A DNA stretch of 64,000 bases from Magnetococcales bacterium (GTDB lineage Bacteria > Pseudomonadota > Magnetococcia > Magnetococcales > DC0425bin3). This document shows positions 298 to 62,127 of this stretch, in pieces (positions within the stretch are counted from its first letter, which is position 1; each line of letters begins with the position of its first letter). The stretch spans positions 1 through 64,000 of the forward strand of contig JADGBZ010000009.1 in NCBI GenBank assembly GCA_015231175.1. The letters are read 5' to 3'. The position numbers were made by a program, and so were the translations under genes. The notes beneath the pieces are model-generated. The model was given only the letters and a program-made list of their open reading frames with translations, had not been told where the DNA came from and did no database searches.

Positions 298-311
298 GAC
301 ACCACCAAAAA

Positions 312-522
312 AAAGCCTGGACAGGAAAGCCTTTGTCAGGGCTGCGCCTCGAACCCCACCAGGGCGCTGCCCTGGACCAAGACAGGGAGCCAGCCCCCTG
401 GACCCCGATGCGTGGTCGGGTGTTGAATAGTGACTGATAGCCTTTGTCAGGACTTCGCCCCGAACCCCACCAGGGCGGCGTCCAAGGCCCTGACAAGAGG
501 CCAGCCCCTGGATCCCGATTTG
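312..522 (+). repeat. Two head-to-tail copies of the GC-rich intergenic repeat
   Basis: Copy 1 runs from about 312 to 434 and copy 2 from about 437 to 522. Both show the family layout: GAAAGCCTTTGTCAGGG-like start, CCCCGAACCCCACCAGGG, a run of short CCAGGG/CCCTGG palindromes, and a CCCCGAT end. Copy 1 ends in a decayed terminal motif (GTTGAATAGTGAC). Short ORFs across these copies on both strands are by-products of repeat composition. Confidence 0.8.
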
Positions 523-553
523 TTTTGCCCCGGCCAACGAGAGAACCCGACAT

Positions 554-6268: not shown

Positions 6269-6325
6269 CGCCCTGACAAAGGCTTTCCTGTCCAAGCTTT
6301 TCTTGAAATGGTGGTGAATAGTTAC
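6269..6325 (-). repeat. Truncated copy of the intergenic repeat, terminal part only
   Basis: Only the outer end of the element survives: CCCTGACAAAGGCTTTC, a short spacer with AAGCTTTTCTTG, and an intact terminal motif GTGGTGAATAGTTAC ending at 6325. The GC-rich core is missing. The intact end makes this copy useful for defining the element boundary. Confidence 0.75.
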
Positions 6326-17978: not shown

Positions 17979-18191
17979 ATGAAAGAAAATGGCATTACCA
18001 GGGCAGAACTTGCCGATCGTCTTGGGAAGAGTGAATCCTTTGTGTCCCAGGTGCTGAGCGGCCATCGCAACATGACCCTGGAAACCTTGGCTGATATCGC
18101 CTACACCCTGGACCTGAAAGTGAAAGTTGATTTCGGACGTGACGATTGGGTGGGCACTGAACCCTTGAAACACCCCGGTCAAACACTTTGA
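17979..18191 (+). CDS. XRE-family helix-turn-helix protein, possibly 5'-disrupted
   Basis: 70 residues from the first available ATG, with a helix-turn-helix: ITRAELADRLGKSESFVSQVL then MTLETLADIAYTLDLKVKV. This is the antitoxin-type or phage-type XRE class. The same frame is open upstream to a TGA at 17901-17903 and reads SFHRDAFILDTTENICVRM, sequence that normally belongs to this family, but contains no start codon. An ATG two bases out of phase at 17900 (MKEGRK then TAA) suggests a frameshift in the A-rich run at 17912-17924. The product may therefore be shortened. No toxin partner is evident. Confidence 0.55.
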   Translation: MKENGITRAELADRLGKSESFVSQVLSGHRNMTLETLADIAYTLDLKVKVDFGRDDWVGTEPLKHPGQTL

Positions 18192-18507
18192 CATGAAAGC
18201 CTTTGTCAGGGCTTCGACCCGAACCCTGTGAGAAAAGCCAGGATATGAAAGCCCTTGTCAGAGCTTCGCCCCGAACCCTGTGAGAAAAGCCAGGATATGA
18301 AAGCCTTTGTCAGGGCTTCGCCCCGAACCCCACCAGGGCGCTGCCCTGGACAAAGCCAGGGAGCCAGCACCCTGGACCCCGATGCGTGGCCCAGTACTCG
18401 AAAAATCAGGATATGAAAGCCTTTGTCAGGGCTTCGCCCCGAACCCCGCCAGGGCGCTGCCCTGGACAAAGCCAGGGAGCCAGCACCCTGGACCCCGATG
18501 CGTTATC
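18192..18507 (+). repeat. Cluster of four repeat copies, two truncated and two full
   Basis: Two 50-55 base partial copies (about 18194-18245 and 18246-18300), each ending in GAACCCTGTGAGAAAAGCCAGG, precede two full cores (about 18299-18397 and 18414-18507). The repeated GAAAGCCTTTGTCAGGG starts show head-to-tail accumulation. Terminal GTAAC motifs are not preserved. The cluster fills the space between convergent genes. Confidence 0.8.
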
Positions 18508-18508
18508 G

Positions 18509-20461: not shown

Positions 20462-20549
20462 AGGTCCAGGAGGAAGGGCTGCGCCCTTCCTCCTGGTGGG
20501 GTTCGGGGCGAAGCCCCGACAAAGGCTTTCATATCCTGGCTTTTCTTAA
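20462..20549 (-). repeat. Old truncated repeat copy
   Basis: A reverse-oriented partial copy: GGAAGGGCTGCGCCCTTCC palindrome, then CTGGTGGGGTTCGGGGCGAAGCC and CCGACAAAGGCTTTCATATCC. It has lost its left terminus and directly abuts the better-preserved element at 20558. Confidence 0.75.
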
Positions 20550-20557
20550 AAGAATAC

Positions 20558-20728
20558 GTAACTATTCACCACCCGCCAACGAATCGGGGTTCAGGGGGCT
20601 GGCTCCCTGGCTTAGTCCAGGGCAGAGCCCTGGCTTTGTCCAGGGCAGCGCCCTGGTGGGGTTCGGGGCGAAGCCCTGACAAAGGCTTTCACATCCTGGC
20701 TTTTCCTGCAAGGGGGGCAAATAGTTAC
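20558..20728 (-). mobile_element. MITE-like element with GTAAC inverted ends (171 bp)
   Basis: The left end is GTAACTATTCACCAC and the right end is GCAAATAGTTAC, giving a perfect nine-bp terminal inverted repeat. The flanking octamers AAGAATAC (20550-20557) and AAAAATAC (20729-20736) match at seven of eight positions, consistent with a target duplication. The core contains the GC-rich repeat plus an extra CCAGGGCAGAGCCCTGG palindrome. No coding capacity. GTAA ends with 8-bp duplications are typical of IS66-family elements. Confidence 0.75.
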
Positions 20729-25765: not shown

Positions 25766-28219
25766 ATGTCCGATCATCGCAAAGCTCGGCAAAGACATGT
25801 TCAGCACGCATCCACTTCGTCGCCAACACCCGTCCGACAATCGGCCTTCGACCTCTATGCCGAAGGCAAGCTGGCCGCAGCCTTGGCAACGGCGGAGATC
25901 GCCCTGCGTGCGCACAGACAGGATGTCGACCTGCTGAACCTCGCCGCCTATTGCCATGGGCAGTTGGGCAACCCGCAGCAGGCCTTGGACCTTTGGCAAC
26001 AGGCCCTCCGGATCAAGCCAGATTATGCCGATGCCTATTTCAATATTGGCAATTTTTTGAAACAACTCGGCCTTGTCAAAGAAGCCGAAGCAGCCCTCCG
26101 CCAGGCCCTGCACTTCAAGCCCAACCATGCGGACTTCCACAACAATCTGGGCAACCTGCTGAAAGAACAGGGGCGTCTCGACGAGGCCGAGACCATCTAC
26201 CGGCAGGCCCTGCACCACCAACCAGACCACGCCGATCTGCATGCCAACCTGGGGGTACTCCTCAAAAAACAGGCTCGCTTCGAGGCGTCCGAGCTGGCCC
26301 TGCGACAGGCCCTGCGCATCCGCCCGGATCACGCCAACGCCCTCTACAACCTGGGAAATCTTTTGCAGGAACAAAACCGCCTTGCCGAGTCGGCAGAGGC
26401 CTACCAACAGGCGCTGCACCACCACCCAAACCATGTGGATGCGCTGAACAATCTGGGCAGCGTTTTGCACAAACAGCACAATTTTGCCGCAGCCGAGACC
26501 ACCTACCGGCAGGCCTTGCAGATCAGGCCGGAAGATGCAGATATCTGCAACAACCTCGCCAACCTCCTGAAAGAGATGCAGGCCTGGGAGGCCGCCGAGG
26601 CCCTCTACCGGCAGGCCCTGCGCAGCAGACCCAACCAGGCCGATCTGCACTCCAACCTGGGTGTCCTCCTGAAAAAACAGGCCCGCTACGCCGAGGCGGA
26701 ACACGCCTTCCGGCAAGCCCTGGCCATCAGGCCGGATTTCGCCCATATCCACTACAATCTGGGCACGCTCCTGCAAGAGACCCAACGCTTTGCCGAAGCC
26801 GAGTCCGCCTATCGGCAAACCCTCCTGCACATGCCCGATCACGCCGATGCCCACAACAATCTGGGCAATATTCTGAAAATTTTCAAACGCTACGATGAGG
26901 CCGAGGCGGCCTACCGACAGGCCATGCTCTGCCGGAACAACTTTGCCGAAGCCCTCAGCAATCTGGGCTCCCTCCTCCAGGATATGCAACGTTTCGACGA
27001 GGCCGAAGCCGCCTATCGGCAGGCCCTGCACCTGCAACCCGACAACTCCGGCGCTCACAACAATCTGGGCGTTCTCCTCCTGGATGTGGGGCAACCCGAT
27101 GCAGCCATCCTCTCCTTCCGCCAGGCCATTGCCATACAGCCGAATCTTGTAGCGGCCCACCGTCACCTCGCCTTCACCAAACGGTTCAAACAAAGCGACC
27201 CGGACCTGTTGGCCATCGAAAAACTGTTGTCACAAGAGGCCCTCTCCGATGGAGAGATGGCCCAGTTGCACTATGCGATCGCCAAAGCCAAAGCGGATCT
27301 CGGCACCTTCGATGAGGCCTTCTCGCACTACCTGCAAGGCGCCCGTTTGAAACGCAGGGAGTTCGATTATCATATCACGGAAATTCAAAGTTATTTCAAT
27401 GCCATCACCCTCCGTTGCACGGCCAGGTGGATCGAAACGCATGCCAGGAAAGAGCGATCCGGTCCCATTCCGGTGTTCATCGTCGGCATGCCCAGGTCCG
27501 GCACCACCCTGGTCGAGCAGATTCTTGCCAGTCACCCCCTGGTCCACGCCTCGGGTGAACTGGAATTTTTTCGGAAGATGATCGATGAACACTACCTCCG
27601 CCCCGAACAAACCTGGCCCGACTGGCTGGAGAGTCTCTCCACGGAAGAGTTGGCGCAACTGGGCCAAAAATACCTGCAAGCCTTGACGCAGCCGGCACAA
27701 GGCAAAAAGTGGATCACCGACAAAATGCCAAGCAACTTTCAATATCTTGGCTTGATAGTGGCTGCCCTGCCCCAGGCACGCATCCTTCATGTCCAGCGGG
27801 ATGCCGCCGACACCTGCCTCTCCTGTTTTACCAACTATTTTACCCATGGACAGGCCTTCTCTTATGACCTGACCGAACTGGGCATGCACTATCGCGCCTA
27901 TGCCGGCCTGATGGACCATTGGCGCAGCGCCTTGCCACCCAACCGGATGTGGGAGATCCGGTACGAACAGTTGATCGCGAATCCAGAACCGATGATCCGC
28001 GACCTGCTGGCTTTCTGTGGATTGACGTGGCACCCGGCCTGCCGTGAATTTTATCACACCAAAAGGCCGATCCAGACCGCCAGCGCCTTGCAGGTGCGCC
28101 AACCTCTGTATCAAACCTCCGTGCAGCGCTGGCGCGTCTATCAGCAGCAACTGGCACCTTTGTTTGCGGCCCTGGGACCATGGGCCCCGCCGGAGTGGTC
28201 TCTGGCGCGCAAAGGGTAA
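25766..28219 (+). CDS. TPR protein with C-terminal sulfotransferase domain
   Basis: 817 residues. About 14 consecutive TPRs of the NNLGNLLKEQGRLDEAE type span residues 25-470. The last 270 residues form a sulfotransferase domain: PVFIVGMPRSGTTLVEQILA is the PAPS 5'-phosphosulfate loop, and VQRDAADTCLSCFTNYFTHG is the 3'-phosphate region. It would transfer sulfate from PAPS to an unknown acceptor, with the TPRs perhaps holding a protein substrate. GGAGAG eight bases upstream supports the ATG. It follows the RimK-like gene by 46 bases and precedes the pyruvate kinase by 20. Confidence 0.88.
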   Translation: MSDHRKARQRHVQHASTSSPTPVRQSAFDLYAEGKLAAALATAEIALRAHRQDVDLLNLAAYCHGQLGNPQQALDLWQQALRIKPDYADAYFNIGNFLKQLGLVKEAEAALRQALHFKPNHADFHNNLGNLLKEQGRLDEAETIYRQALHHQPDHADLHANLGVLLKKQARFEASELALRQALRIRPDHANALYNLGNLLQEQNRLAESAEAYQQALHHHPNHVDALNNLGSVLHKQHNFAAAETTYRQALQIRPEDADICNNLANLLKEMQAWEAAEALYRQALRSRPNQADLHSNLGVLLKKQARYAEAEHAFRQALAIRPDFAHIHYNLGTLLQETQRFAEAESAYRQTLLHMPDHADAHNNLGNILKIFKRYDEAEAAYRQAMLCRNNFAEALSNLGSLLQDMQRFDEAEAAYRQALHLQPDNSGAHNNLGVLLLDVGQPDAAILSFRQAIAIQPNLVAAHRHLAFTKRFKQSDPDLLAIEKLLSQEALSDGEMAQLHYAIAKAKADLGTFDEAFSHYLQGARLKRREFDYHITEIQSYFNAITLRCTARWIETHARKERSGPIPVFIVGMPRSGTTLVEQILASHPLVHASGELEFFRKMIDEHYLRPEQTWPDWLESLSTEELAQLGQKYLQALTQPAQGKKWITDKMPSNFQYLGLIVAALPQARILHVQRDAADTCLSCFTNYFTHGQAFSYDLTELGMHYRAYAGLMDHWRSALPPNRMWEIRYEQLIANPEPMIRDLLAFCGLTWHPACREFYHTKRPIQTASALQVRQPLYQTSVQRWRVYQQQLAPLFAALGPWAPPEWSLARKG

Positions 28220-30105: not shown

Positions 30106-31642
30106 CGCATTTTTCGGGCGAAGATATCCACCTTTCCGCCACACCCCACATCAAACCGGCAACGTTGAACGAAAGCAGTGGCAACCAGTGGCCAACATGG
30201 TGCGCGGCGACCCAGACCACCACACTGAACAACGTCACCACCACAACCGCCACCCCTTTGAACAAACCGGAAACATGCCGGGATCGGCTGCACAGCAGGG
30301 CCGTCAGGGCCACTGTCTGCACATGCAGGTCGATCCACAACAATGAACCGGGACCAGCCAGGGCGACCACGATGGCCATGCCGATCCCGGTCAACAGCAA
30401 ACTGATCCCACCAGCCAGCGGCAGAGAGACAAGCACCACACCGGCAATAACGGGAATGACCCCAACCCGCCAACCCATGAACTCCGCCAGCGCCTGCCAT
30501 TCGCGAGGATCGACCACAATCCGCTCCCCGTGTACCAGCATCGCCCGATGCAGATCCGCAACAGCCTGGATCGCCGCACCCCCGGCGCTCTTCTGTGCCA
30601 AAAGCTCTCCCAGCGCCCTCTGACTCTCCGGCCAGCGCTGCGCCGCGAGCAGGGCGCGACCCAACCCCTCCCGGGCCAGTGCAGAGGTGGCATCCCTGGC
30701 CAACACATCCGAAAAAATGGCGAGGGCCTCCGCAACCTGTCGGGAACGGAGTGCAAGCCAACCCAAACCACTCCGGGTATCTTCCAGGTGCAGATTGGAG
30801 CGCAACGCCTGTTGAAACCGCGTTTGGGCCTCGACATCACTCCCGTGTTGGTACAAAACCCACCCCAGGCCATCCAGGGCATGAGCGTGGCAGGGATCGC
30901 GTTGCAGCGCCTGCCGGAAGGCCCGACCAGCGGCAGAATAGTTGGCCAGCTTGAACTCCGCCCACCCCAGACCGTTCCAGAACTCTACCTGTTCCGGGGC
31001 AGCGGTGACCAGCGCAAGAAACGCCTCCCTGGCCTGTGGATAGCCCCTCTCGCCATAAAGTTGCCACGCCTTGGTCAGCCGCTCGACCTGAACGGGCCTG
31101 GCATGCAACGATCCCTGCGGGAGAGGTAACGTGGCTGCCGGCGGCGTCATCTGATGGTACAAATGATCAACCCAGGCGATCCCCCGCTGCACAGGCAACA
31201 CCGCCCAGGTCAGGCCCATGGCAACGAGCAGAAAAGGAATGGTCAGGGGCGACAAACCGATGGGTGCATCTCCCCAAGGATACACCATGCCATCCAACAA
31301 CCAGGCCGCCAGCCAGGCCGCCAACACCGTCAACACCACAGCGCCCACCGGATGGGAAAAGTGCCATGCCACCAAAAAACCACACAAAGCACCATTGACC
31401 CCATACCACCCGGTCACCAACAAGCGGCGGTCACGCTGGCGCCAAAAGGGCCAGAGCGTCGCCACCCATGCCCCCAGAAAAGACAAACCGCACGCCGTCA
31501 AGGAAAAAGGGGCGATGCAAAGGGTCAACAACACCCCCGCCACTCCGTGGCGGCAAAGCGCCAGCTGGGCCATGCCCGTCAAAGTGGCCGAAGCGAATAA
31601 CCGAAGGCTAGTGGACCAACCGACTTGATTTGAAGTGCTCAC
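30071..31642 (-). CDS. Urea-transporter-like membrane protein with internal TPR region
   Basis: 523 residues from a GTG start. Residues about 10-165 are hydrophobic and carry GWYGVNGALCGFLVAWHF and SPLTIPFLLVAMG, which resemble the GLYGFNGxLVGLAL and LTAPFVL blocks of urea transporters. A soluble region of about 220 residues with four or five TPRs follows (EFWNGLGWAEFKLANYSAAG, HALDGLGWVLYQHGSDVEA). Residues about 385-510 return to membrane segments, including GPGSLLWIDLHVQTVALTALL and LLSFNVAGLMWG. It looks like a urea-transporter fold split by a TPR insertion. It is the last gene of the minus-strand cluster and follows the asparagine-synthase-like gene. Confidence 0.65.
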   Translation of the reverse strand: MSTSNQVGWSTSLRLFASATLTGMAQLALCRHGVAGVLLTLCIAPFSLTACGLSFLGAWVATLWPFWRQRDRRLLVTGWYGVNGALCGFLVAWHFSHPVGAVVLTVLAAWLAAWLLDGMVYPWGDAPIGLSPLTIPFLLVAMGLTWAVLPVQRGIAWVDHLYHQMTPPAATLPLPQGSLHARPVQVERLTKAWQLYGERGYPQAREAFLALVTAAPEQVEFWNGLGWAEFKLANYSAAGRAFRQALQRDPCHAHALDGLGWVLYQHGSDVEAQTRFQQALRSNLHLEDTRSGLGWLALRSRQVAEALAIFSDVLARDATSALAREGLGRALLAAQRWPESQRALGELLAQKSAGGAAIQAVADLHRAMLVHGERIVVDPREWQALAEFMGWRVGVIPVIAGVVLVSLPLAGGISLLLTGIGMAIVVALAGPGSLLWIDLHVQTVALTALLCSRSRHVSGLFKGVAVVVVTLFSVVVWVAAHHVGHWLPLLSFNVAGLMWGVAERWISSPEKCVILQHQTRPTV

Positions 31643-31647
31643 TTTTC

Positions 31648-31773
31648 GTGCCTATTCCGCACTCTTTCAAGAAAAGCTTGGAAATGAAAGCCTTTGTCAG
31701 GGCTTCGCCCCGAACCCCACCAGGGCGCTGCCCTGGACTAAGCCAGGGAGCCAGCCCCCTGGACCCCGATTCA
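31648..31773 (+). repeat. Intergenic repeat copy inside the PqqD/ATP-grasp cluster
   Basis: A full GC-rich core in plus orientation. The left end GTGCCTATTCCGCACTCTTTCAAG is a decayed form of the GTAACTATTCACCAC terminus; the right terminus is lost after CCCCGATTC. It separates the asparagine-synthase-like gene from the TPR urea-transporter-like gene. Confidence 0.8.
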
Positions 31774-31810
31774 TGGCTTGCCTGCACATCAAATCAACAC
31801 GGTTGAGCCA

Positions 31811-33310
31811 CTAGCGGCGAAAGAGTGCAAGCAACGGCTCCCCATGGTAACCGGTAAAGTCATGGTATCTCCCGGCATCCGACCAGATGGCCTGGTTGGG
31901 GTTGGCCAGAGGAAAACAGGTCCGCCACCAGGGGAAAAATGCCCGGCTCTCCGGGTCATCTCCCCCCCAGCCGGCTGCATCCCCACCCCCAGCCGGCTGC
32001 ATCCTGGCCAGATCGAATCCCGCAACACCGCTCCCCTCGACCAGAGGAAGCTTTTGCCGCCATTGGATCGCAGGTGGCAACAAGCCAGCCGCCGCCTCCC
32101 GCAAGACCCATTTGCTCACCCACTCCCCCCGATGACGGCGCAACCTGGCCTCCATGGGCAGGTTGAGCGCCCTCTCCGCCACAGCCTGATCCAGAAAGGG
32201 CACACGCAGTTCAAGGCCATGCGCCATGGTGACCCGATCGACTCGTTGCAGTTCCGTGCGGTGCAGGTTGTTGAAACCGTACTCCATGGCCTGCGGCCAC
32301 TCCCGGGGCGGCAACCGGGCCAGATAGTCATATCCGGCGAACAGCTCGTCAGCTCCATCGCCACCCAGCACCACCTTGCAGGCCTGGCTCGCAACCTGCG
32401 ACAATAAATAAAGTGGAATGGCATTGCGCACCATAGTTGGATTGAAGCTCTCCAAGGCGGCGATCACATCAGGCAAAACCGTGCGCACCTTCTCTTCCGT
32501 GACCCGTAAGACCTGATGGCGGATCCCCAGATGGGCCGCCACTTCGGCTGCCGGAACCTCATCGGGAGAACCCGGCAAAACCACACTGTAGGCCACGATA
32601 TCTGGCCGGATCCGAGCAGCCAGGGCCGCTATGACACTGCTGTCGAGCCCGCCACTGAGAAAAACCCCGCAAGGGTCGCTCTCCGGCAGGTGGGAAGCAA
32701 CGGCCTGCTCCAAAAGTTGCCGCAGGGATGGCCGACGCCACGTCGGGAAACGCCCGGGAAACCGATACCATCGTGCACCACCCCGCGCCGTGAGAAAATG
32801 CCCGGGGGGCAAAAATTGCGGCTGGCAGGAAAAAGAGGCAAATGCCTTCAGTTCCGAAGCCAACGCGACTCCCCCCGCCAACCGGGCATGATAGAGCGGT
32901 TTGATGCCATAGGGATCCCGTACCGCCACCCAATCCCCACCGGCCAGATCGGCCAGAATAAACGCATACATGCCGCGCAGGCGCTGCAATCCCGCCAACC
33001 CGTCCCGCGCCAGCAGGGGAAAGATGACCTCTCCATCGGACCTGGTCCGGAAGGGATAATCGGCAAATTCGCGGCGTAAGGCCTGGTGGTTGTAAATCTC
33101 GCCATTGAACGCCAACACCCAACGACCCTGGCCGCACAAAGGAAGAGGATCGCCCACCCGTCCGACAATCGCCAGACGGTGCATACCGATGTGGATCCCC
33201 TCGCCCTCGGCGCTGCCGCTCTCGTCAGGTCCGCGATGTCCAAGGGCGCCAAACAGGGTCGTAAAAGTGTCGGCATCCCGGATGCCGATGGTGGCGGCTA
33301 TGCCACACAT
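31811..33310 (-). CDS. Glutamine-dependent asparagine-synthase-like amidotransferase
   Basis: 499 residues. The start is fixed at ATG 33310 because the next residue is the nucleophilic Cys of MCGIAATIG, with GGAG eight bases upstream. The N-terminal glutaminase has HRGPDE, MHRLAIVG and LAFNGEIYNHQALR. The synthetase half carries the ATP-pyrophosphatase loop CGVFLSGGLDSSVIAALA near residue 225 and GGDGADELFAGYDYLAR near 325. It is shorter than typical AsnB. Given its neighbours (ATP-grasp, PLP decarboxylase, PqqD-like), it more likely amidates or cyclises a pathway intermediate than makes free asparagine. Confidence 0.88.
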   Translation of the reverse strand: MCGIAATIGIRDADTFTTLFGALGHRGPDESGSAEGEGIHIGMHRLAIVGRVGDPLPLCGQGRWVLAFNGEIYNHQALRREFADYPFRTRSDGEVIFPLLARDGLAGLQRLRGMYAFILADLAGGDWVAVRDPYGIKPLYHARLAGGVALASELKAFASFSCQPQFLPPGHFLTARGGARWYRFPGRFPTWRRPSLRQLLEQAVASHLPESDPCGVFLSGGLDSSVIAALAARIRPDIVAYSVVLPGSPDEVPAAEVAAHLGIRHQVLRVTEEKVRTVLPDVIAALESFNPTMVRNAIPLYLLSQVASQACKVVLGGDGADELFAGYDYLARLPPREWPQAMEYGFNNLHRTELQRVDRVTMAHGLELRVPFLDQAVAERALNLPMEARLRRHRGEWVSKWVLREAAAGLLPPAIQWRQKLPLVEGSGVAGFDLARMQPAGGGDAAGWGGDDPESRAFFPWWRTCFPLANPNQAIWSDAGRYHDFTGYHGEPLLALFRR

Positions 33311-33349
33311 GACATAAACTCCAATCACAACGATTCAAAACCATTCCAA

Positions 33350-33462
33350 AAAAAACTTGGATATGAAAGCCTTTGTCAGGGCTTCGCCCCGAACCCCACC
33401 AGGACTCCGTCCTCGACCTGCCAGGGAGCCAGTTCCCTGGACCCCCATGCGTGGCCGGGTGC
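33350..33462 (+). repeat. Intergenic repeat copy inside the PqqD/ATP-grasp cluster
   Basis: Plus-oriented full core beginning ATATGAAAGCCTTTGTCAGGG and ending CCCCCATGCG. It fills the gap between the M23/urea-transporter gene and the asparagine-synthase-like gene. Terminal GTAAC motifs are decayed. Confidence 0.8.
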
Positions 33463-37034: not shown

Positions 37035-37063
37035 CTTGCGCTCCCTGGTCGCTTCGGTGTCCG

Positions 37064-37192
37064 GTAACGAATCGGGGTCCAGGGGGCTGGCTCCCTGGCA
37101 AGACCAGGACGGCGTCCTGGTGGGGTTCGGGGCAAAGCCCCGACAAAAGCTTTCATGTCCAAGCCTTTCTTGAAAAGGTGCTGAATGGTGAC
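37064..37192 (-). repeat. Intergenic repeat copy inside the PqqD/ATP-grasp cluster
   Basis: A 129-base reverse copy beginning GTAACGAATCGGGG and ending TGAATGGTGAC. The GTAAC joins the core directly, indicating a small deletion of the left terminal region. It lies between the ATP-grasp gene and the decarboxylase gene. Confidence 0.8.
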
Positions 37193-38910: not shown

Positions 38911-40947
38911 CTACCGATGCGGCACGATGAACGGCATCACATTGGTTGGTGGTGGCGGCGCCGCAAAATGCGGGAGCGTCGGCGGAACGACAGGTTGGAC
39001 CAACGGCATCACCCTCGTGGTCGGGGGGGGTTGCACGGGAGTCGTAGCCGGGTTTGTCACCGTGGACACGGGCGGCAATCCGCCTGTTCCCGTCGGCGCC
39101 ACTGGTGCAGTCATGACTGTCGGCGAGGTTGTCCCACTCGTGGTTGGCGCCTGCGTGCCACCACTGGTTGCCGGTTGCGTGCCACCACTGGTTGCCGGTT
39201 GCGTGCCACCACTGGTTGCCGGTTGCGTGCCACCACTGGTTATTGGCTGCGTGCCACCACTGGTTATTGGCTGCGTACTGCCACTGGTCGCCGGTTGCGT
39301 GCTACCACTGGTTATTGGCTGCGTACTGCCACTGGTCGCCGGTTGCGTACCAACACTGGTTATTGGCTGCGTGCCAACACCGATCGGTGCCTGCACCCCG
39401 CTACCCGTTGGCACCTGCGCACCACTACCGATTGGCGCCACCTGCACCCCGCCACCCGTCGGCGCCTGCGTGCTACCACCGACCGGCGTCGATATCCCAC
39501 CACCCAAGGTTGGCGTCTGTTGCGTCCCACCCAAGAACGGAGATATCACGCCACCTCCACCTGGAGCCGTCACGCCACCAAAGGTCGGTCCCACAGAACC
39601 TGCCCCTGGTTGCGTCCCGCCTGCTGCCGGACCTTGGCCACCCGCTGTCGGCGCCTGGCCGCCTGCCGGACCTTGGCCACCCGCTGTCGGCGCCTGGCCA
39701 CCTGCCGGACCTTGGCCACCTGCCGGACTTTGGCCACCCGCTGTCGGCACTTGGCCGCCCGCCAGACCCTGGCCACCCGGCTGCAACTGAGGCGGTAACT
39801 GCTTGATCACATCGTTGTGAATCTGGTTTTGCATCTGGCCCTGAGCCGGTGGTGGTGGCGCACTTGTCGCGGGAGGCGGAGCTGTCCCCCGAACACCGAT
39901 GGAGAACCCTCCACCCAAAGGAAGGCCGAAGGGTATCCCGCCCGCGCCCATGGGTGACAGATTCGGTCCAGCCCCTCCCATAGGTCCGGAAGGTCCGATC
40001 GGACCGCCCGGCCCACCCATGGGTCCGGTTGGTCCACCCGGCAGACCCGCCGCTCCGGCAGGTCCGACAGGTCCACCTGCACCGACGGCTCCCCCCTGAC
40101 CACCCGGTCCACCCGGTCCACCCGGTCCACCCTGGCCACCCGGTCCACCCTGGCCACCCTGATCACCGGGTCCAGCCCGGTCACCTGGGCCAGCCGGCCC
40201 ACCCTGGTCACCCGGGCCGCCTTCTCTCTGCCCACCTCTCTCTCCAGCACCACCCGACCTGGCACTTTCACTCGATGATGCAGATTTGCCGTCCGCACCT
40301 CGCTGTCCTGCCGGTTGCAAAACCGCTGCCTGGCTGGTGAACTGCGGTCTTTGGGTAAAACCTGTCACCATGGCGTTCTGCCCCGGTCGCAACTGCAAAG
40401 CACCGGCGCCATTCGCCAGGGTCACGATCCCCTCCTGCACGGAAACGTGCAACCTCTGTCCAACATTGACAGAAAAGTTGGTGCCTCGTACCCCCAAAAC
40501 AGCAAACCTGGTACGCAACTGATATTTCTTCTCTCCTTCCTTGCCTATGTGCCCGGTCAACGCACGAAACTGACCCGTGATCAGCTTGAGATATGACCGG
40601 TTGCCGGGTGCATCCTGCCCCGCATAGTGGTAATCCTCGATGGCAAAGGTGGAGTTGGCGTAGACGGAGATCAGACCGCCGTCGGAAAACCGCAACTGGG
40701 CCTGTCCATCCTTGGCCTCAATGATATCCCCGGAGAAAAGTTCACTGCCCTTTTGCAAGGGTTGGGATCGGTGATCGCTCTTGCGAATGGCCAGGATCTC
40801 ACCTTGTACAGCCACAACCCTGGCGGAAACACCCCCCCCATCCGCCCCCCAGGAAGGATTTGACTGGAGCAAAACCAGGATCGGAACCAACAGAAAACCG
40901 ATCATGGTGGACAAAAAACGCATGGAAACCGAACGAATCTGGGTCAT
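38911..40947 (-). CDS. FecR-domain protein with collagen-like and Thr/Gln/Pro repeats
   Basis: 678 residues from ATG 40947, overlapping the upstream gene as ATGA. A signal peptide or anchor occupies about 10-35 (MRFLSTMIGFLLVPILVLLQ). The FecR domain covers about 45-200: VVAVQGEILAIRKSD, LFSGDIIEAKDGQAQLRFSD, and FAVLGVRGTNFSVNV. Then come a Gly-X-Y stretch of about 90 residues, a GGQAPTAGGQGPA region, and roughly ten copies of an eight-residue SGGTQPAT/ITSGSTQP unit. The C-terminus is Pro/Val-rich. This is an exported, probably surface-displayed protein with a long extended stalk; the beta-barrel partner upstream may place it in the outer membrane. Confidence 0.8.
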   Translation of the reverse strand: MTQIRSVSMRFLSTMIGFLLVPILVLLQSNPSWGADGGGVSARVVAVQGEILAIRKSDHRSQPLQKGSELFSGDIIEAKDGQAQLRFSDGGLISVYANSTFAIEDYHYAGQDAPGNRSYLKLITGQFRALTGHIGKEGEKKYQLRTRFAVLGVRGTNFSVNVGQRLHVSVQEGIVTLANGAGALQLRPGQNAMVTGFTQRPQFTSQAAVLQPAGQRGADGKSASSSESARSGGAGERGGQREGGPGDQGGPAGPGDRAGPGDQGGQGGPGGQGGPGGPGGPGGQGGAVGAGGPVGPAGAAGLPGGPTGPMGGPGGPIGPSGPMGGAGPNLSPMGAGGIPFGLPLGGGFSIGVRGTAPPPATSAPPPPAQGQMQNQIHNDVIKQLPPQLQPGGQGLAGGQVPTAGGQSPAGGQGPAGGQAPTAGGQGPAGGQAPTAGGQGPAAGGTQPGAGSVGPTFGGVTAPGGGGVISPFLGGTQQTPTLGGGISTPVGGSTQAPTGGGVQVAPIGSGAQVPTGSGVQAPIGVGTQPITSVGTQPATSGSTQPITSGSTQPATSGSTQPITSGGTQPITSGGTQPATSGGTQPATSGGTQPATSGGTQAPTTSGTTSPTVMTAPVAPTGTGGLPPVSTVTNPATTPVQPPPTTRVMPLVQPVVPPTLPHFAAPPPPTNVMPFIVPHR
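39153..39376. repeat. 24-bp coding tandem repeat in the FecR gene
   Basis: About nine consecutive 24-base units related to GTGCCACCACTGGTTGCCGG on the plus strand, each encoding eight residues on the minus strand. Units alternate between two types (ending in GTTGCCGGTTGC or GTTATTGGCTGC) and include ACT/ACC variants, suggesting duplication of a two-unit block. Copy number is likely to vary between strains. Confidence 0.85.
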
Positions 40948-45448: not shown

Positions 45449-45575
45449 GTTTTTCCTCTTTTTCGCATGACTGATGGATGACAAAACAGACCATGGCAGG
45501 TAGAGTGGCTCGCTGGCGCTCTCCTTGAAAAGGCTTTTCTTGAAAAGGCGCTGGCCCGTTTTTCAATCGTCTTTT

Positions 45576-45722
45576 GTAACTACTCACCACCCGGCCACGA
45601 ATCGGGGTCCAGGGGGCTGGCTCCCTGGCAGGTCCAGGACAGAGTCCTGGTGGGGTTCGGGGCGAAGCCCTGACAAAGGCTTTTATGTCCAAGCTTTTCT
45701 TGCAAGAGTGGTGAATAGTTAC
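45576..45722 (-). mobile_element. MITE-like element with 15-bp inverted ends and 8-bp target duplication
   Basis: The best-preserved copy of the repeat family, 147 bp. The left end is GTAACTACTCACCAC and the right end GTGGTGAATAGTTAC, a 15-bp terminal inverted repeat with one mismatch. It is flanked on both sides by the identical octamer CGTCTTTT (45568-45575 and 45723-45730), a clear target-site duplication. The core holds the GC-rich palindromes and no gene. GTAA ends and 8-bp duplications are the hallmark of IS66-family transposition, so an IS66 transposase elsewhere probably moved it. It lies just upstream of cysQ. Confidence 0.88.
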
Positions 45723-45756
45723 CGTCTTTTTGGCAACTTGATCGGAAATGTGCCCC

Positions 45757-48883: not shown

Positions 48884-48928
48884 AAAGGCCTTGACATGAA
48901 AGGCCTTGACATGAAAGGCCTTGACATG
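48884..48928 (+). repeat. Three tandem 15-bp units AAAGGCCTTGACATG
   Basis: Three perfect copies occupy 48884-48898, 48899-48913 and 48914-48928; a fourth, diverging unit starts the neighbouring intergenic repeat. Each unit contains TTGACA, the consensus -35 hexamer. The unit derives from the outer part of the repeat family (GGACATGAAAGCC). Confidence 0.9.
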
Positions 48929-49037
48929 AAAGGCCTTTGTCAGGGCTTCGCCCCGAACCCCACCAGGGCGCTGCCCTGGACCCGCCAGGGAGCCAGCCCC
49001 CTGGACCCCGATTCGTTGCCGGGCGCTCAATGGTTAC
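48929..49037 (+). repeat. Intergenic repeat copy
   Basis: Plus-oriented full core from AAAGGCCTTTGTCAGGG to CCCCGATTCG, with a decayed right terminus CTCAATGGTTAC ending at 49037. It sits between the convergent bluB and receiver-phosphatase genes. Confidence 0.8.
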
Positions 49038-59479: not shown

Positions 59480-59698
59480 GCTTTTCCGCGAAAAATTTTG
59501 TCAGGGAAAAATTTTGTCAGGGTTGCGCTGCGAAGAAAGCCGGGACACAGGTCGCCTTCAACACCCTTGCAAGAAAAGCCTGGACATGAAAGCCTTTGTC
59601 AGGGCTTCGCCCCGAGCCCCACCAGGGCTCTGCCCTGAACCCGCCAGGGAGCCAGCCCCCTGGACCCCAATTCGTTGGCGGGTGGTGAATAGTTACCA
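59480..59698 (+). repeat. Intergenic repeat copy with intact right terminus plus a partial one
   Basis: A partial duplicate at about 59480-59535 (AAAAATTTTGTCAGGG twice) precedes a full plus-oriented core from about 59565 that ends GGTGGTGAATAGTTAC at 59698. The left end (GTCGCCTTCAACACCC) is diverged. The intact right end abuts the stop of the thymidylate-synthase-like gene. Confidence 0.8.
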
Positions 59699-59702
59699 TT
59701 TT

Positions 59703-61244
59703 TTATCCATCGTCCTGCACGCGATCCACATGCCGCGCAATCTCCCTGCCCAGGTAGAGGGCGTGGGAGATATCCGCCACGGCCATGTCGCGTACCAGTT
59801 GCCGCTCCAGCTCCATGGGGGTGCGTCCCCGATACTCGGTCAGGCGTTGCCCCTCGAAAGAGTGTTGGAGAACGATCTCACGGGTGACCGGATCCGTCGT
59901 GATCTGGAACTCACCGTGCGGGTCGGGCCGCAGGCCGTGGGGGGCGGCCTCGGGATCCAGGCCACCGGCGTCGCTCCATGCTTTGGCCACCGCCTGGGCC
60001 CGCTCCATGGCCAGAGGATCGACGGAGATGGAGTGGCTGAAGATGGTCAAGGGTCCACAGGGCAGCGCCACCGCCTCGGCAATACGGGCCTGGATGGCCA
60101 TGAGGCCATAACAGTTTTCCGGCCAGGCATCCATGGCGTTGTGGCTGCGGAAGGTGGCGGTCAGGTGCAAGGCGCCAGCAAATTTGCGCAAAAAAAGCGT
60201 GACCAGACAAGGGTGGCCGTGCGTCTCCGGCAACAAATCCCGGCTGTTGTCCCACAGGGAGATGTAGGCATTGCGGGTTTCCGGATCGGCGCGCAGGTGG
60301 GTGATGGCCAGTTCCAGCCCATCCAGGGGTGCGGCCTGCCCCTCTGCCGGGAACCCCCAGCCGGGGATCGCCGCGGCATCGGGATCGCCCGTATCGGCAA
60401 GGGTAGGTCGAAAGTATCCACGCAGGCGGTTGCCGTAGGTATAGGACTCCTCCTGCGGCGGCGTCGGGTCCATGATTCTTTTTTGGTAGGCGCGAAAACG
60501 GTCCAGGGAGAAGCCGTGCCGGGAGAGTGTCTCGGCGGTTTCCTCCACGGGACGCTTGACGATCACCTTGACGTTGGGGAGTTCGATACGCTCGCCCTTG
60601 CGCAGCCGTGTACGGTGCCCAAAGCGGACGATGCGAAAGATCAATTCACGCCAGGCCGCCATGGGTGTCAGGCCGACCACCGTATGCGCCAAAGGCTCCG
60701 ATGGATGGTGTTGGACCGTGAGGACGGGCAGGGGAAAGTCAAGGCGTTCACCCTGCACGGGTTGCGGGGGGGGGAGATGGGCAAAAAAATGCGCGACCCC
60801 GGGCTGGGTTTCCGGATCACGCAGGGATCCCAACGGAGTCACGGCGATCCGCCCGCCAAACAGTTCCGGTGTGACCAGCCCATCAATCTTGCGTTGTGTA
60901 CCCACGATGCGCCAGGTGGAGGTGCCCAGGAAGAGGGTCGTTTCCAGGCCGGCATGAAAAAAGGCGGTCAACTCCTCGCGGGATCCGGACAGGTTGCGAC
61001 CCAGCACGAGCAGGTGGCGGATTTGCGGGTTCCAGGCCAGATTGCGCAACAGCTCGGGGAGACCGTTGCCGTAAAGATTGCCCATGACGGCAACTCGGGA
61101 TGTCTCCGGTTGCAGGTCGACCGACCAGGCGACAAACTGTTGGCGAACCCTCTCCACGGGGGTCCACAAGGTCACCACCCCAACATCTCCCAGTGGGTTG
61201 ATGGCCTGTAGGCGGTCCTTGAAGTAGAGGGGAAGAAATTCCAT
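59703..61244 (-). CDS. Thymidylate-synthase-like protein with MtrA/DUF4346-like N-terminal region
   Basis: 513 residues from ATG 61244 (MEFLPLYFKDRLQAINP); ATG 61280 or earlier is possible and no clear ribosome site decides. The N-terminal part (VAVMGNLYGNGLPELLRNL, WNPQIRHLLVLGRNLSGSREEL) resembles the DUF4346/MtrA-type domain. The C-terminal third has GHPCLVTLFLRKFAGALHLT, FRSHNAMDAWPENCYGLMAI and IFSHSISVDPLAMERA, which follows the thymidylate synthase layout: PC, RS-D and the central Asn. The full catalytic set was not verified, so it may be a TS-related C1-transfer enzyme rather than ThyA. Confidence 0.65.
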   Translation of the reverse strand: MEFLPLYFKDRLQAINPLGDVGVVTLWTPVERVRQQFVAWSVDLQPETSRVAVMGNLYGNGLPELLRNLAWNPQIRHLLVLGRNLSGSREELTAFFHAGLETTLFLGTSTWRIVGTQRKIDGLVTPELFGGRIAVTPLGSLRDPETQPGVAHFFAHLPPPQPVQGERLDFPLPVLTVQHHPSEPLAHTVVGLTPMAAWRELIFRIVRFGHRTRLRKGERIELPNVKVIVKRPVEETAETLSRHGFSLDRFRAYQKRIMDPTPPQEESYTYGNRLRGYFRPTLADTGDPDAAAIPGWGFPAEGQAAPLDGLELAITHLRADPETRNAYISLWDNSRDLLPETHGHPCLVTLFLRKFAGALHLTATFRSHNAMDAWPENCYGLMAIQARIAEAVALPCGPLTIFSHSISVDPLAMERAQAVAKAWSDAGGLDPEAAPHGLRPDPHGEFQITTDPVTREIVLQHSFEGQRLTEYRGRTPMELERQLVRDMAVADISHALYLGREIARHVDRVQDDG

Positions 61245-61479
61245 GGCGATAGATTGCAATGAATTTGCCAACAGGGCCATCGCATTTGAAAAAACGTGCC
61301 GCCGACCCCAATTTTTGCAAACCTGCAATATGTCTCGCAAACCTGCAATACGTCCGCCTTCTGGCGCAAAAAGACGCGCCAGAAGGCGGACCATGGCCCG
61401 TCGCCCCTTAAGCCTTTTTTGCAAACAACGCAAAAAAGGCCTGGGAGAAGGGGGGCGAACAACAACAAAACGGGGCGCT

Positions 61480-61548
61480 GCCCCGGACCCCGCAAGGGCG
61501 CTGCCCTTGACCCGCCAGGGAGCCAGCCCCCTGGACCCCAATTCCAAA
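61480..61548 (+). repeat. Partial intergenic repeat core
   Basis: GGGGCGCTGCCCCGGACCCC, then GCAAGGGCGCTGCCCTTGACCCGCCAGGGAGCCAGCCCCCTGGACCCCAATTCC. The outer parts are missing. Confidence 0.75.
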
Positions 61549-61654
61549 AAACGATCATGGCTTTGGGTATGCCCACTTCAAATGCGATTGTCCTGGGGAC
61601 AAGCCACCAAGGTGGCAGCGGTGTCAGAGGATATGATAGCCTGAGAAACCGTTC

Positions 61655-61792
61655 AGCGATCGGTAACGCATCGGGGTCCAGGGGGCTGGCTCCCTGGCAG
61701 GGCCTAAGACAGCGTCCTGGTGGGGTTCGGGACGAAGCCCTGACAAAGGCTTTCATATCCAGGCTTTTTTTGCAAGGGTGCCGGATGGTTAC
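61655..61792 (-). repeat. Intergenic repeat copy
   Basis: Reverse-oriented full core: GTAACGCATCGGGGTCCAGG through TGACAAAGGCTTTCATATCC, ending CCGGATGGTTAC at 61792. The termini are diverged. It sits 30 bases upstream of the ACP gene and may carry or influence its promoter. Confidence 0.8.
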
Positions 61793-61821
61793 AAGCTGGA
61801 TTCAACAAAAAGGAGTCGGTC

Positions 61822-62127
61822 ATGCCACCAGGGGCGGAAGAGATCTTGGCAACAATCTACGGATGCGTCGATGAGATCAATCGGCAACTGCCAAAAAATG
61901 GACAACTGCAAAAGTCCCCCGCCAGCATCCTGATCGGTGCGGGCGGGGTTCTGGATTCGTTGGGACTCATCACGTTGTTGGTGGCCCTGGAGGATGCCCT
62001 GAAAAAAAAACTGGGCCTTGCCTGTTTTTTGCTGGACGAAAAAATTCTCGTCGATCCCCAGGGACCGTTTCATACGATAGATGGTCTGTTGCAATGGATC
62101 ATCGCCAGCCAAAACAAGGGGGGGTGA
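61822..62127 (+). CDS. Acyl carrier protein
   Basis: 101 residues. AAGGAG six bases upstream fixes ATG 61822. The four-helix carrier layout is visible, with the phosphopantetheine Ser in GGVLDSLGLITLLVALEDAL. FHTIDGLLQWI closes the last helix. It is followed after three bases by an FkbH-like gene, so it is a dedicated carrier rather than the fatty-acid AcpP. Confidence 0.85.
   Translation: MPPGAEEILATIYGCVDEINRQLPKNGQLQKSPASILIGAGGVLDSLGLITLLVALEDALKKKLGLACFLLDEKILVDPQGPFHTIDGLLQWIIASQNKGG

What the first reader, a model, noticed from the sequence alone, without database searches (positions are those of the whole stretch)
45576..45722. Intergenic GC-rich repeats are IS66-like MITEs with intact ends and target duplication
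The copy at 45576-45722 has 15-bp inverted ends starting GTAAC and is flanked by identical CGTCTTTT octamers. The copy at 20558-20728 has nine-bp perfect ends and octamers matching 7/8. IS66-family elements are known for GTAA-beginning ends and 8-bp duplications. About fifteen copies or fragments lie in this window, nearly all intergenic, so what looks like a REP-type palindrome family is a decaying mobile element.
Basis: partly seen in the sequence, partly recalled or inferred. Interest (0 to 1): 0.78.

Follow-up and report, generated by a model that had tools for sequence, protein, structure and literature searches.

The report
IS66-type mini-transposon riddling a Magnetococcales genome
The short GC-rich repeats between the genes of this Magnetococcales bacterium (the group that includes magnetotactic cocci) are mostly remnants of a 147-base gene-less transposon that appears to be moved by IS66-type jumping genes found in related bacteria; its hairpin core, however, also sits in copies with entirely different ends.

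Summary
Window 45576-45722 is 147 bp with 15-bp inverted ends (14/15, not perfect) and identical CGTCTTTT octamers; 20558-20728 has ends and octamers as described. The end motif occurs 253 times in the 3.81-Mb genome, against 0 for the reversed control. In a 740-kb sample, 11 of 15 two-ended copies have 8-bp duplications (control about 1%). Pooled, 28 of 49 copies have exactly 8 matching bases and none 9. Uninterrupted homologues of two disrupted transposase genes give empty-site evidence. The parent kind was found: single-ORF IS66 transposases (ISBst12 type) in other Magnetococcales and other phyla carry the same GTAACTATTCA ends and 8-bp duplications. The window's own genome holds only a truncated copy with the matching left end. 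So these are IS66-group MITEs, now without a visible complete helper. It occurs without GTAAC ends in related genomes, and window copy 31650-31777 lies inside a second, CTA/TAG-flanked (IS630-like target) MITE. Only 2 of about 18 window places keep two ends plus a duplication. New detail: neighbouring elements sit end to end exactly 7 bp apart (6 of 12 close pairs).

The parts
45568..45575 (+). left copy of the 8-bp target duplication CGTCTTTT
45576..45722 (+). full-length 147-bp IS66-group MITE: 15-bp ends plus three GC-rich hairpins
   Evidence: DNA fold z -4.7
45576..45590 (+). left terminal inverted repeat GTAACTACTCACCAC
45708..45722 (-). right terminal inverted repeat GTAACTATTCACCAC (read on -)
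45723..45730 (+). right copy of the 8-bp target duplication CGTCTTTT
20558..20728 (+). second two-ended MITE copy (171 bp, one hairpin duplicated), octamers AAGAATAC/AAAAATAC
308..434 (-). decayed MITE, one end 13/15
435..524 (-). core-only fragment next to it
6270..6325 (+). half MITE with a perfect right end
18181..18508 (-). array of four partial copies without ends
20462..20553 (+). core hairpins without GTAAC ends, in another wrapper (CTGGGATGGAGGTCCAGGAGG-type)
31611..31811 (.). different MITE: ends GTGGACCAACCGACTTGATTTGAA / GTGGCTCAACCGTGTTGATTTGATG, flanks CTA/TAG, carrying a truncated IS66-group MITE at 31650-31777
33329..33462 (-). decayed MITE (one end 10/15, other lost)
37060..37192 (+). 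decayed MITE, right end 13/15
48906..49037 (-). decayed MITE, one end 12/15
59557..59696 (-). MITE with one perfect end, other lost
61645..61792 (+). decayed MITE, ends 10/15 and 12/15, no duplication left

Best explanation
The repeats are copies, most of them decayed, of a 147-bp non-autonomous element (MITE). It has 15-bp ends GTAACTATTCA(C/G)CAC of the single-ORF (ISBst12-type) group of IS66 insertion sequences and makes an exact 8-bp target duplication. An IS66 transposase made by a full-length element with the same ends most likely recognised the MITE ends in trans and moved or copied the whole unit into new sites. The genome kept about 600 copies and fragments, while its only visible helper of that type is now a 5' remnant. 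Shown: the ends, the duplications, empty sites (at protein level), and helper elements with the same ends in relatives. Inferred: that this transposase acts on the MITE in trans, and that the helper was lost or is missing from the assembly. The interior is a GC-rich triple-hairpin cassette shared with other repeats of the order; it also rides inside a second, CTA/TAG-flanked MITE. The MITE is therefore a composite of IS66-type ends and a widespread hairpin module.
For: Copies and ends. Exact 8-bp duplications. Empty sites: a MITE splits a transposase gene at C93 and an IS1-like transposase gene at C32, while uninterrupted homologues span the junction in G014 (86%), G028 (66%) and same-genus G001 (83%). 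Helper: IS66 transposases (Pfam PF03050, NCBIfam NF033517 at 294 bits, cut-off 180) lie in 1.72-1.74-kb elements with ends GTAACTATTCA(C/G)CACC and TSD 8/8 (L073, L074) or 7/8 (L072). Relatives in Desulfobacterota, Gammaproteobacteria and others have GTAACTAYTCAGC-type ends, many with 8/8 TSDs. Own remnant with the left end at the expected offset. The MITE right subterminal region resembles the IS left subterminal region at the same distance from the tip (about 1 of 500 shuffles reach the score). ISDge4, an ISBst12-group IS66 element seen to transpose, has TIRs GTGACTACTCAGCA/GTAACTGCTCAGCA and an 8-bp DR (PMC12898284). In G039 the MITE (L036, TSD 7/8) and the type-A IS coexist.
Against: No complete helper with these ends in the own assembly. 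The two IS66 relatives present have other ends: C1 GTAGTCGTTCAGAGACCCC / GTAACCGTTCAGAGACCCC, and C27 GTAACCGTTCACCAG. Beyond about 40 bp the MITE interior shows no evident similarity to the IS. The core occurs without these ends elsewhere. No transposition was observed.
Confidence: 0.93

Rival explanations
1. The repeats are a REP-type hairpin family (structural or regulatory, spread by a RAYT-like or other route); the GTAAC ends on some copies are incidental.
For: The core hairpins exist without GTAAC ends in G001, G020, G034, G036 and G042 and in 20 of 173 own-genome hits. They fold better than shuffles (z -4.7 as DNA, -3.9 as RNA).
Against: In the own genome 89 of 94 core-spanning copies carry outer MITE segments on at least one side (79 on both). 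Ends and 8-bp duplications define the mobile unit. It may still hold for the core in relatives.
Confidence: 0.05
2. The element belongs to another transposon family with 8-bp duplications (for example ISAs1, IS1 or IS4-group).
For: Target duplication length alone does not identify a family.
Against: The ends match those of intact IS66 transposase elements letter for letter in Magnetococcales, closely in other phyla, and resemble those of ISDge4.
Confidence: 0.02
3. The 7-bp-spaced tandem copies arise from circular or dimer intermediates rather than from a second insertion beside a resident end.
For: Fixed 7-bp spacers between abutting ends resemble IS circle junctions.
Against: The spacer repeats the local flank, and in four of six pairs one partner has an exact 8-bp duplication made of the spacer plus the neighbour's terminal base. 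That fits a sequential insertion; at two sites the outermost octamers do not match each other.
Confidence: 0.2

Closest known systems
ISBst12 group of the IS66 family (for example ISDge4, PMC12898284)
   Same: single transposase ORF; ends GTAACTRYTCAGCA-like; 8-bp duplication; IS66 DDE domain in the helper elements found here
   Different: the window element has no transposase ORF, is 147 bp, and carries a hairpin cassette not found in the IS
Bacterial IS-derived MITEs (MITECca01 of IS982, PMC9769881; MITEPsy1, PMC3189936; MITEAba12, PMC6382973)
   Same: short, gene-less, IS-type ends; MITECca01 also shares a short subterminal stretch with its parent IS; mobilised in trans by inference
   Different: parent family is IS66; about 600 copies and fragments; no full parent left in the assembly; core shared with a second MITE family
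REP / palindromic intergenic repeats
   Same: GC-rich hairpins, mostly intergenic, many copies
   Different: full units have transposon ends and target duplications; no RAYT-type partner was looked for
IS630/Tc1-type MITEs (for the 31611-31811 element)
   Same: CTA/TAG flanks, as expected for TA duplication at CTAG (IS630 preference in the title of a reference listed in PMC2170065)
   Different: no DDE_3 gene in the own genome; ends not matched to a known IS

Membership tests
MITE (non-autonomous IS derivative) | short, no transposase gene, terminal inverted repeats | tested here: met
   147 bp, 15-bp ends
MITE (non-autonomous IS derivative) | target-site duplication at insertion | tested here: met
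   8 bp exactly; control 1%
MITE (non-autonomous IS derivative) | empty sites exist | tested here: met
   uninterrupted homologous genes at two insertion points; (protein level, homologues rather than alleles)
MITE (non-autonomous IS derivative) | moves with a transposase supplied in trans | not testable with these tools
   inferred from identical ends
IS66 family, ISBst12 group (ends) | ends GTAA..., here GTAACTATTCAGCA-like, equal to those of an IS66 transposase element | tested here: met
   ISDge4
IS66 family, ISBst12 group (ends) | 8-bp duplication | tested here: met
IS66 family, ISBst12 group (ends) | complete IS66 element with matching ends in the same genome | tested here: not met
   only a truncated copy with the matching left end (C17:36886 onward). 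Not required for MITE status
REP-type palindrome family | hairpin unit that is itself the repeat, without transposon ends | tested here: inconclusive
   true of the core in relatives and of 20 of 173 own hits; not of the main form
IS630/Tc1-type MITE (31611-31811 only) | TA duplication, preferably at CTAG | tested here: met
   10 of 11 copies flanked CTA/TAG
IS630/Tc1-type MITE (31611-31811 only) | IS630 transposase element with the same ends | tested here: not met
   no PF13358 match in the own genome; relatives not searched

The most novel reading that the evidence does not exclude
An order-wide GC-rich triple-hairpin cassette is a transferable module that has been combined with the ends of two unrelated transposase families (IS66-type and CTA/TAG, IS630-like), and the IS66-type version prefers to insert exactly 7 bp from the end of a resident copy, using the resident's terminal base as part of its 8-bp target. 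That would point to a cassette selected for its own effect and to self-end targeting by the IS66 transposase.
Probability: 0.3. Interest if true: 0.55.

Novelty: new member of a known kind. Interest (0 to 1): 0.42.

Why it matters
No IS66-derived MITE turned up in the literature search made here. This one occurs at roughly 160 copies and fragments per Mb and covers about 1.7% of the sampled genome, so most of these intergenic repeats should be annotated as transposon debris rather than as REP-type repeats. The insertions with intact duplications and the helper elements in relatives make an experimental test of poorly studied IS66/ISBst12 transposition possible, with a 147-bp donor. The shared core between two MITE families and the fixed 7-bp tandem spacing are small, testable puzzles.

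Tried and rejected
Own IS66 relatives at C1 and C27 as direct helpers: their ends differ. C17 contig start as an IS copy: it is a MITE. First profile mixed orientations of the near-palindrome; it was rebuilt with oriented copies. Rfam match: none (the 3.1-kb locus around the element only). IS630 gene in the own genome: none. Dimer or circle origin of the tandems: less consistent than sequential insertion. Literature for IS66 MITEs: nothing found in the open-licence library, which is not proof of absence.

Full report
WHAT IS THERE. The 147-bp unit at 45576-45722 has ends GTAACTACTCACCAC / GTAACTATTCACCAC (14/15) and identical CGTCTTTT octamers. It lies between an ORF on - ending near 45484 and one on + starting at 45748, so it is probably intergenic. 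The 20558-20728 copy has 9-bp perfect ends, octamers matching 7/8, and one extra hairpin. A profile built from 28 oriented full-length copies finds 21 segments in about 18 places in the window. All but these two have lost one or both ends, or the duplication.

GENOME-WIDE TEST. The assembly has 3.81 Mb in 175 contigs. The end motif with up to one mismatch occurs 253 times, the reversed control 0 times. In 864 kb (the window plus forty 20-kb stretches) there are 173 hits. Of 23 copies with both ends at least 13/15, 16 have 7 or 8 identical flanking bases, 12 of them all 8; mismatched left-right pairs give 1.0%. Three stretches were chosen after hits on their contigs were known. Without them and without the window, the figures are 120 hits in 740 kb (162 per Mb, 1.7% of bases) and 11 of 15 with duplications. 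The figure of about 600 copies and fragments genome-wide is this density scaled up. Over 49 pooled copies, 28 match over exactly 8 bases and none over 9. The pooled set includes best-scoring copies, so it measures duplication length, not frequency.

EMPTY SITES. After removing the MITE and one octamer, a broken transposase gene at C93 and an IS1-like transposase gene at C32 read through (the family names are my reading of the sequences). Uninterrupted homologues span the junction in G014 (86% identical, 412-aa frame), G028 (66%) and same-genus G001 (83%). The evidence is at protein level, from homologues rather than allelic sites.

THE HELPER. The own genome has two IS66-domain genes found by Pfam, both with other ends. 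The C1 element ends in GTAGTCGTTCAGAGACCCC and GTAACCGTTCAGAGACCCC with octamers GTAGATTC/GTAGACTC (7/8, read from the sequence); it is 65% identical to a transposase in G013 whose six listed copies have related ends, five of them with TSD 8/8. The truncated C27 element ends in GTAACCGTTCACCAG. Other genomes of the order hold a third type, here 'type A': 1.72-1.74 kb, one ORF, ends GTAACTATTCA(C/G)CACC, TSD 8/8 in L073 and L074 and 7/8 in L072. Its protein is IS66 by Pfam and NCBIfam. The named collection shows these hosts are Magnetococcales MAGs, and that relatives in Desulfobacterota, Gammaproteobacteria and other groups have the same kind of ends, many with 8/8 duplications. Published ISDge4 (ISBst12 group, IS66) has ends GTGACTACTCAGCA/GTAACTGCTCAGCA and an 8-bp repeat (PMC12898284). 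In the own genome a type-A remnant begins at C17:36886 with GTAACTATTCACCAC; its coding match (70%, residues 26-119 of the query) follows the end at about the spacing seen in L073 and stops shortly before a 10-N scaffold gap. A full copy may therefore have been lost, or may be missing from the assembly. G039 holds both the type-A IS and a MITE with TSD 7/8.

ORIGIN OF THE MITE. Beyond the 15-bp ends, the MITE's right subterminal stretch (TCAAGAAAAGCCTGGACA) resembles the left subterminal stretch of type A (TCACGAAAAATCCTTGACA) at the same distance from the tip; about 1 of 500 shuffles score as high. This is suggestive, not proof of descent. The MITE interior is hairpins, not recognisable IS sequence.

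The hairpin core (profile about 29-98) occurs in relatives without GTAAC ends, in other constant wrappers. In the own genome 20 of 173 hits are core-only, and 13 of 173 lie in a second MITE. That element is usually about 200 bp, with ends GTGG(A/C)(C/T)CAACCGNNNTGATTTGA. Ten of 11 copies are flanked by CTA/TAG, and it carries a truncated IS66-group MITE with a decayed GTGACTATTCCGCAC end inside. Window copy 31650-31777 is such a passenger (31611-31811). Similar elements with the core but without that inner end occur in G036 and G042. The flank fits IS630 (CTAG preference, reference listed in PMC2170065), but no IS630-type gene was found in the own genome.

TANDEM SPACING. Of 12 outward-facing end pairs within 60 bp, 6 are exactly 7 bp apart (chance about 2e-8 if gaps were uniform). 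These pairs come from the sample plus stretches fetched around known copies. Exact-motif pairs in G000 (three) and G041 (one) are all at 7. In four of the six, one partner has an exact 8-bp duplication consisting of the spacer plus the neighbour's terminal base. The reading is that a second element inserted beside a resident end; this is inferred.

INTERGENIC BIAS. 88% of sampled bases fall in long ORFs by a crude greedy call, but only 28% of hits lie mostly inside ORFs; since the MITE itself contributes open frames, 28% is probably too high.

VERDICT. IS66/ISBst12-group MITE, about 0.93 confident. Mobilisation in trans is inferred, not shown. It is a new member of a known kind, with two side observations worth a test (shared core, 7-bp tandems).

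Noticed in passing
window 31611-31811: A second MITE family (ends GTGGNYCAACCG...TGATTTGA, CTA/TAG flanks) with a truncated IS66-group MITE inside; 11 copies in 864 kb.
   Followed up: partly
L095:16720-17020, L093:3899-4199, L094:10660-10960, L164 near 932: Neighbouring MITEs stand end to end with exactly 7 bp between them.
   Followed up: partly
own genome C1 about 60300-61995 (L033:4290-5995): Intact-looking 530-aa IS66-family transposase with a third kind of ends (GTAACCGTTCAGAGACCCC) and octamers 7/8; six listed copies of a sister element in G013.
   Followed up: partly
own genome C27:4778-5757 (L034): Truncated IS66 element, ends GTAACCGTTCACCAG / GTAACCGTTCATCAA, no matching octamers.
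   Followed up: no
window 20462-20553 and L094:18415, L105:19841: Core hairpins in another constant wrapper, GAAAGACTGGGATGGAGGTCCAGGAGG-like.
   Followed up: no
window 39083-39442 and 26081-27082: A 24-bp tandem array, and 102-bp (34-codon) repeats inside an ORF that look like TPR repeats.
   Followed up: no
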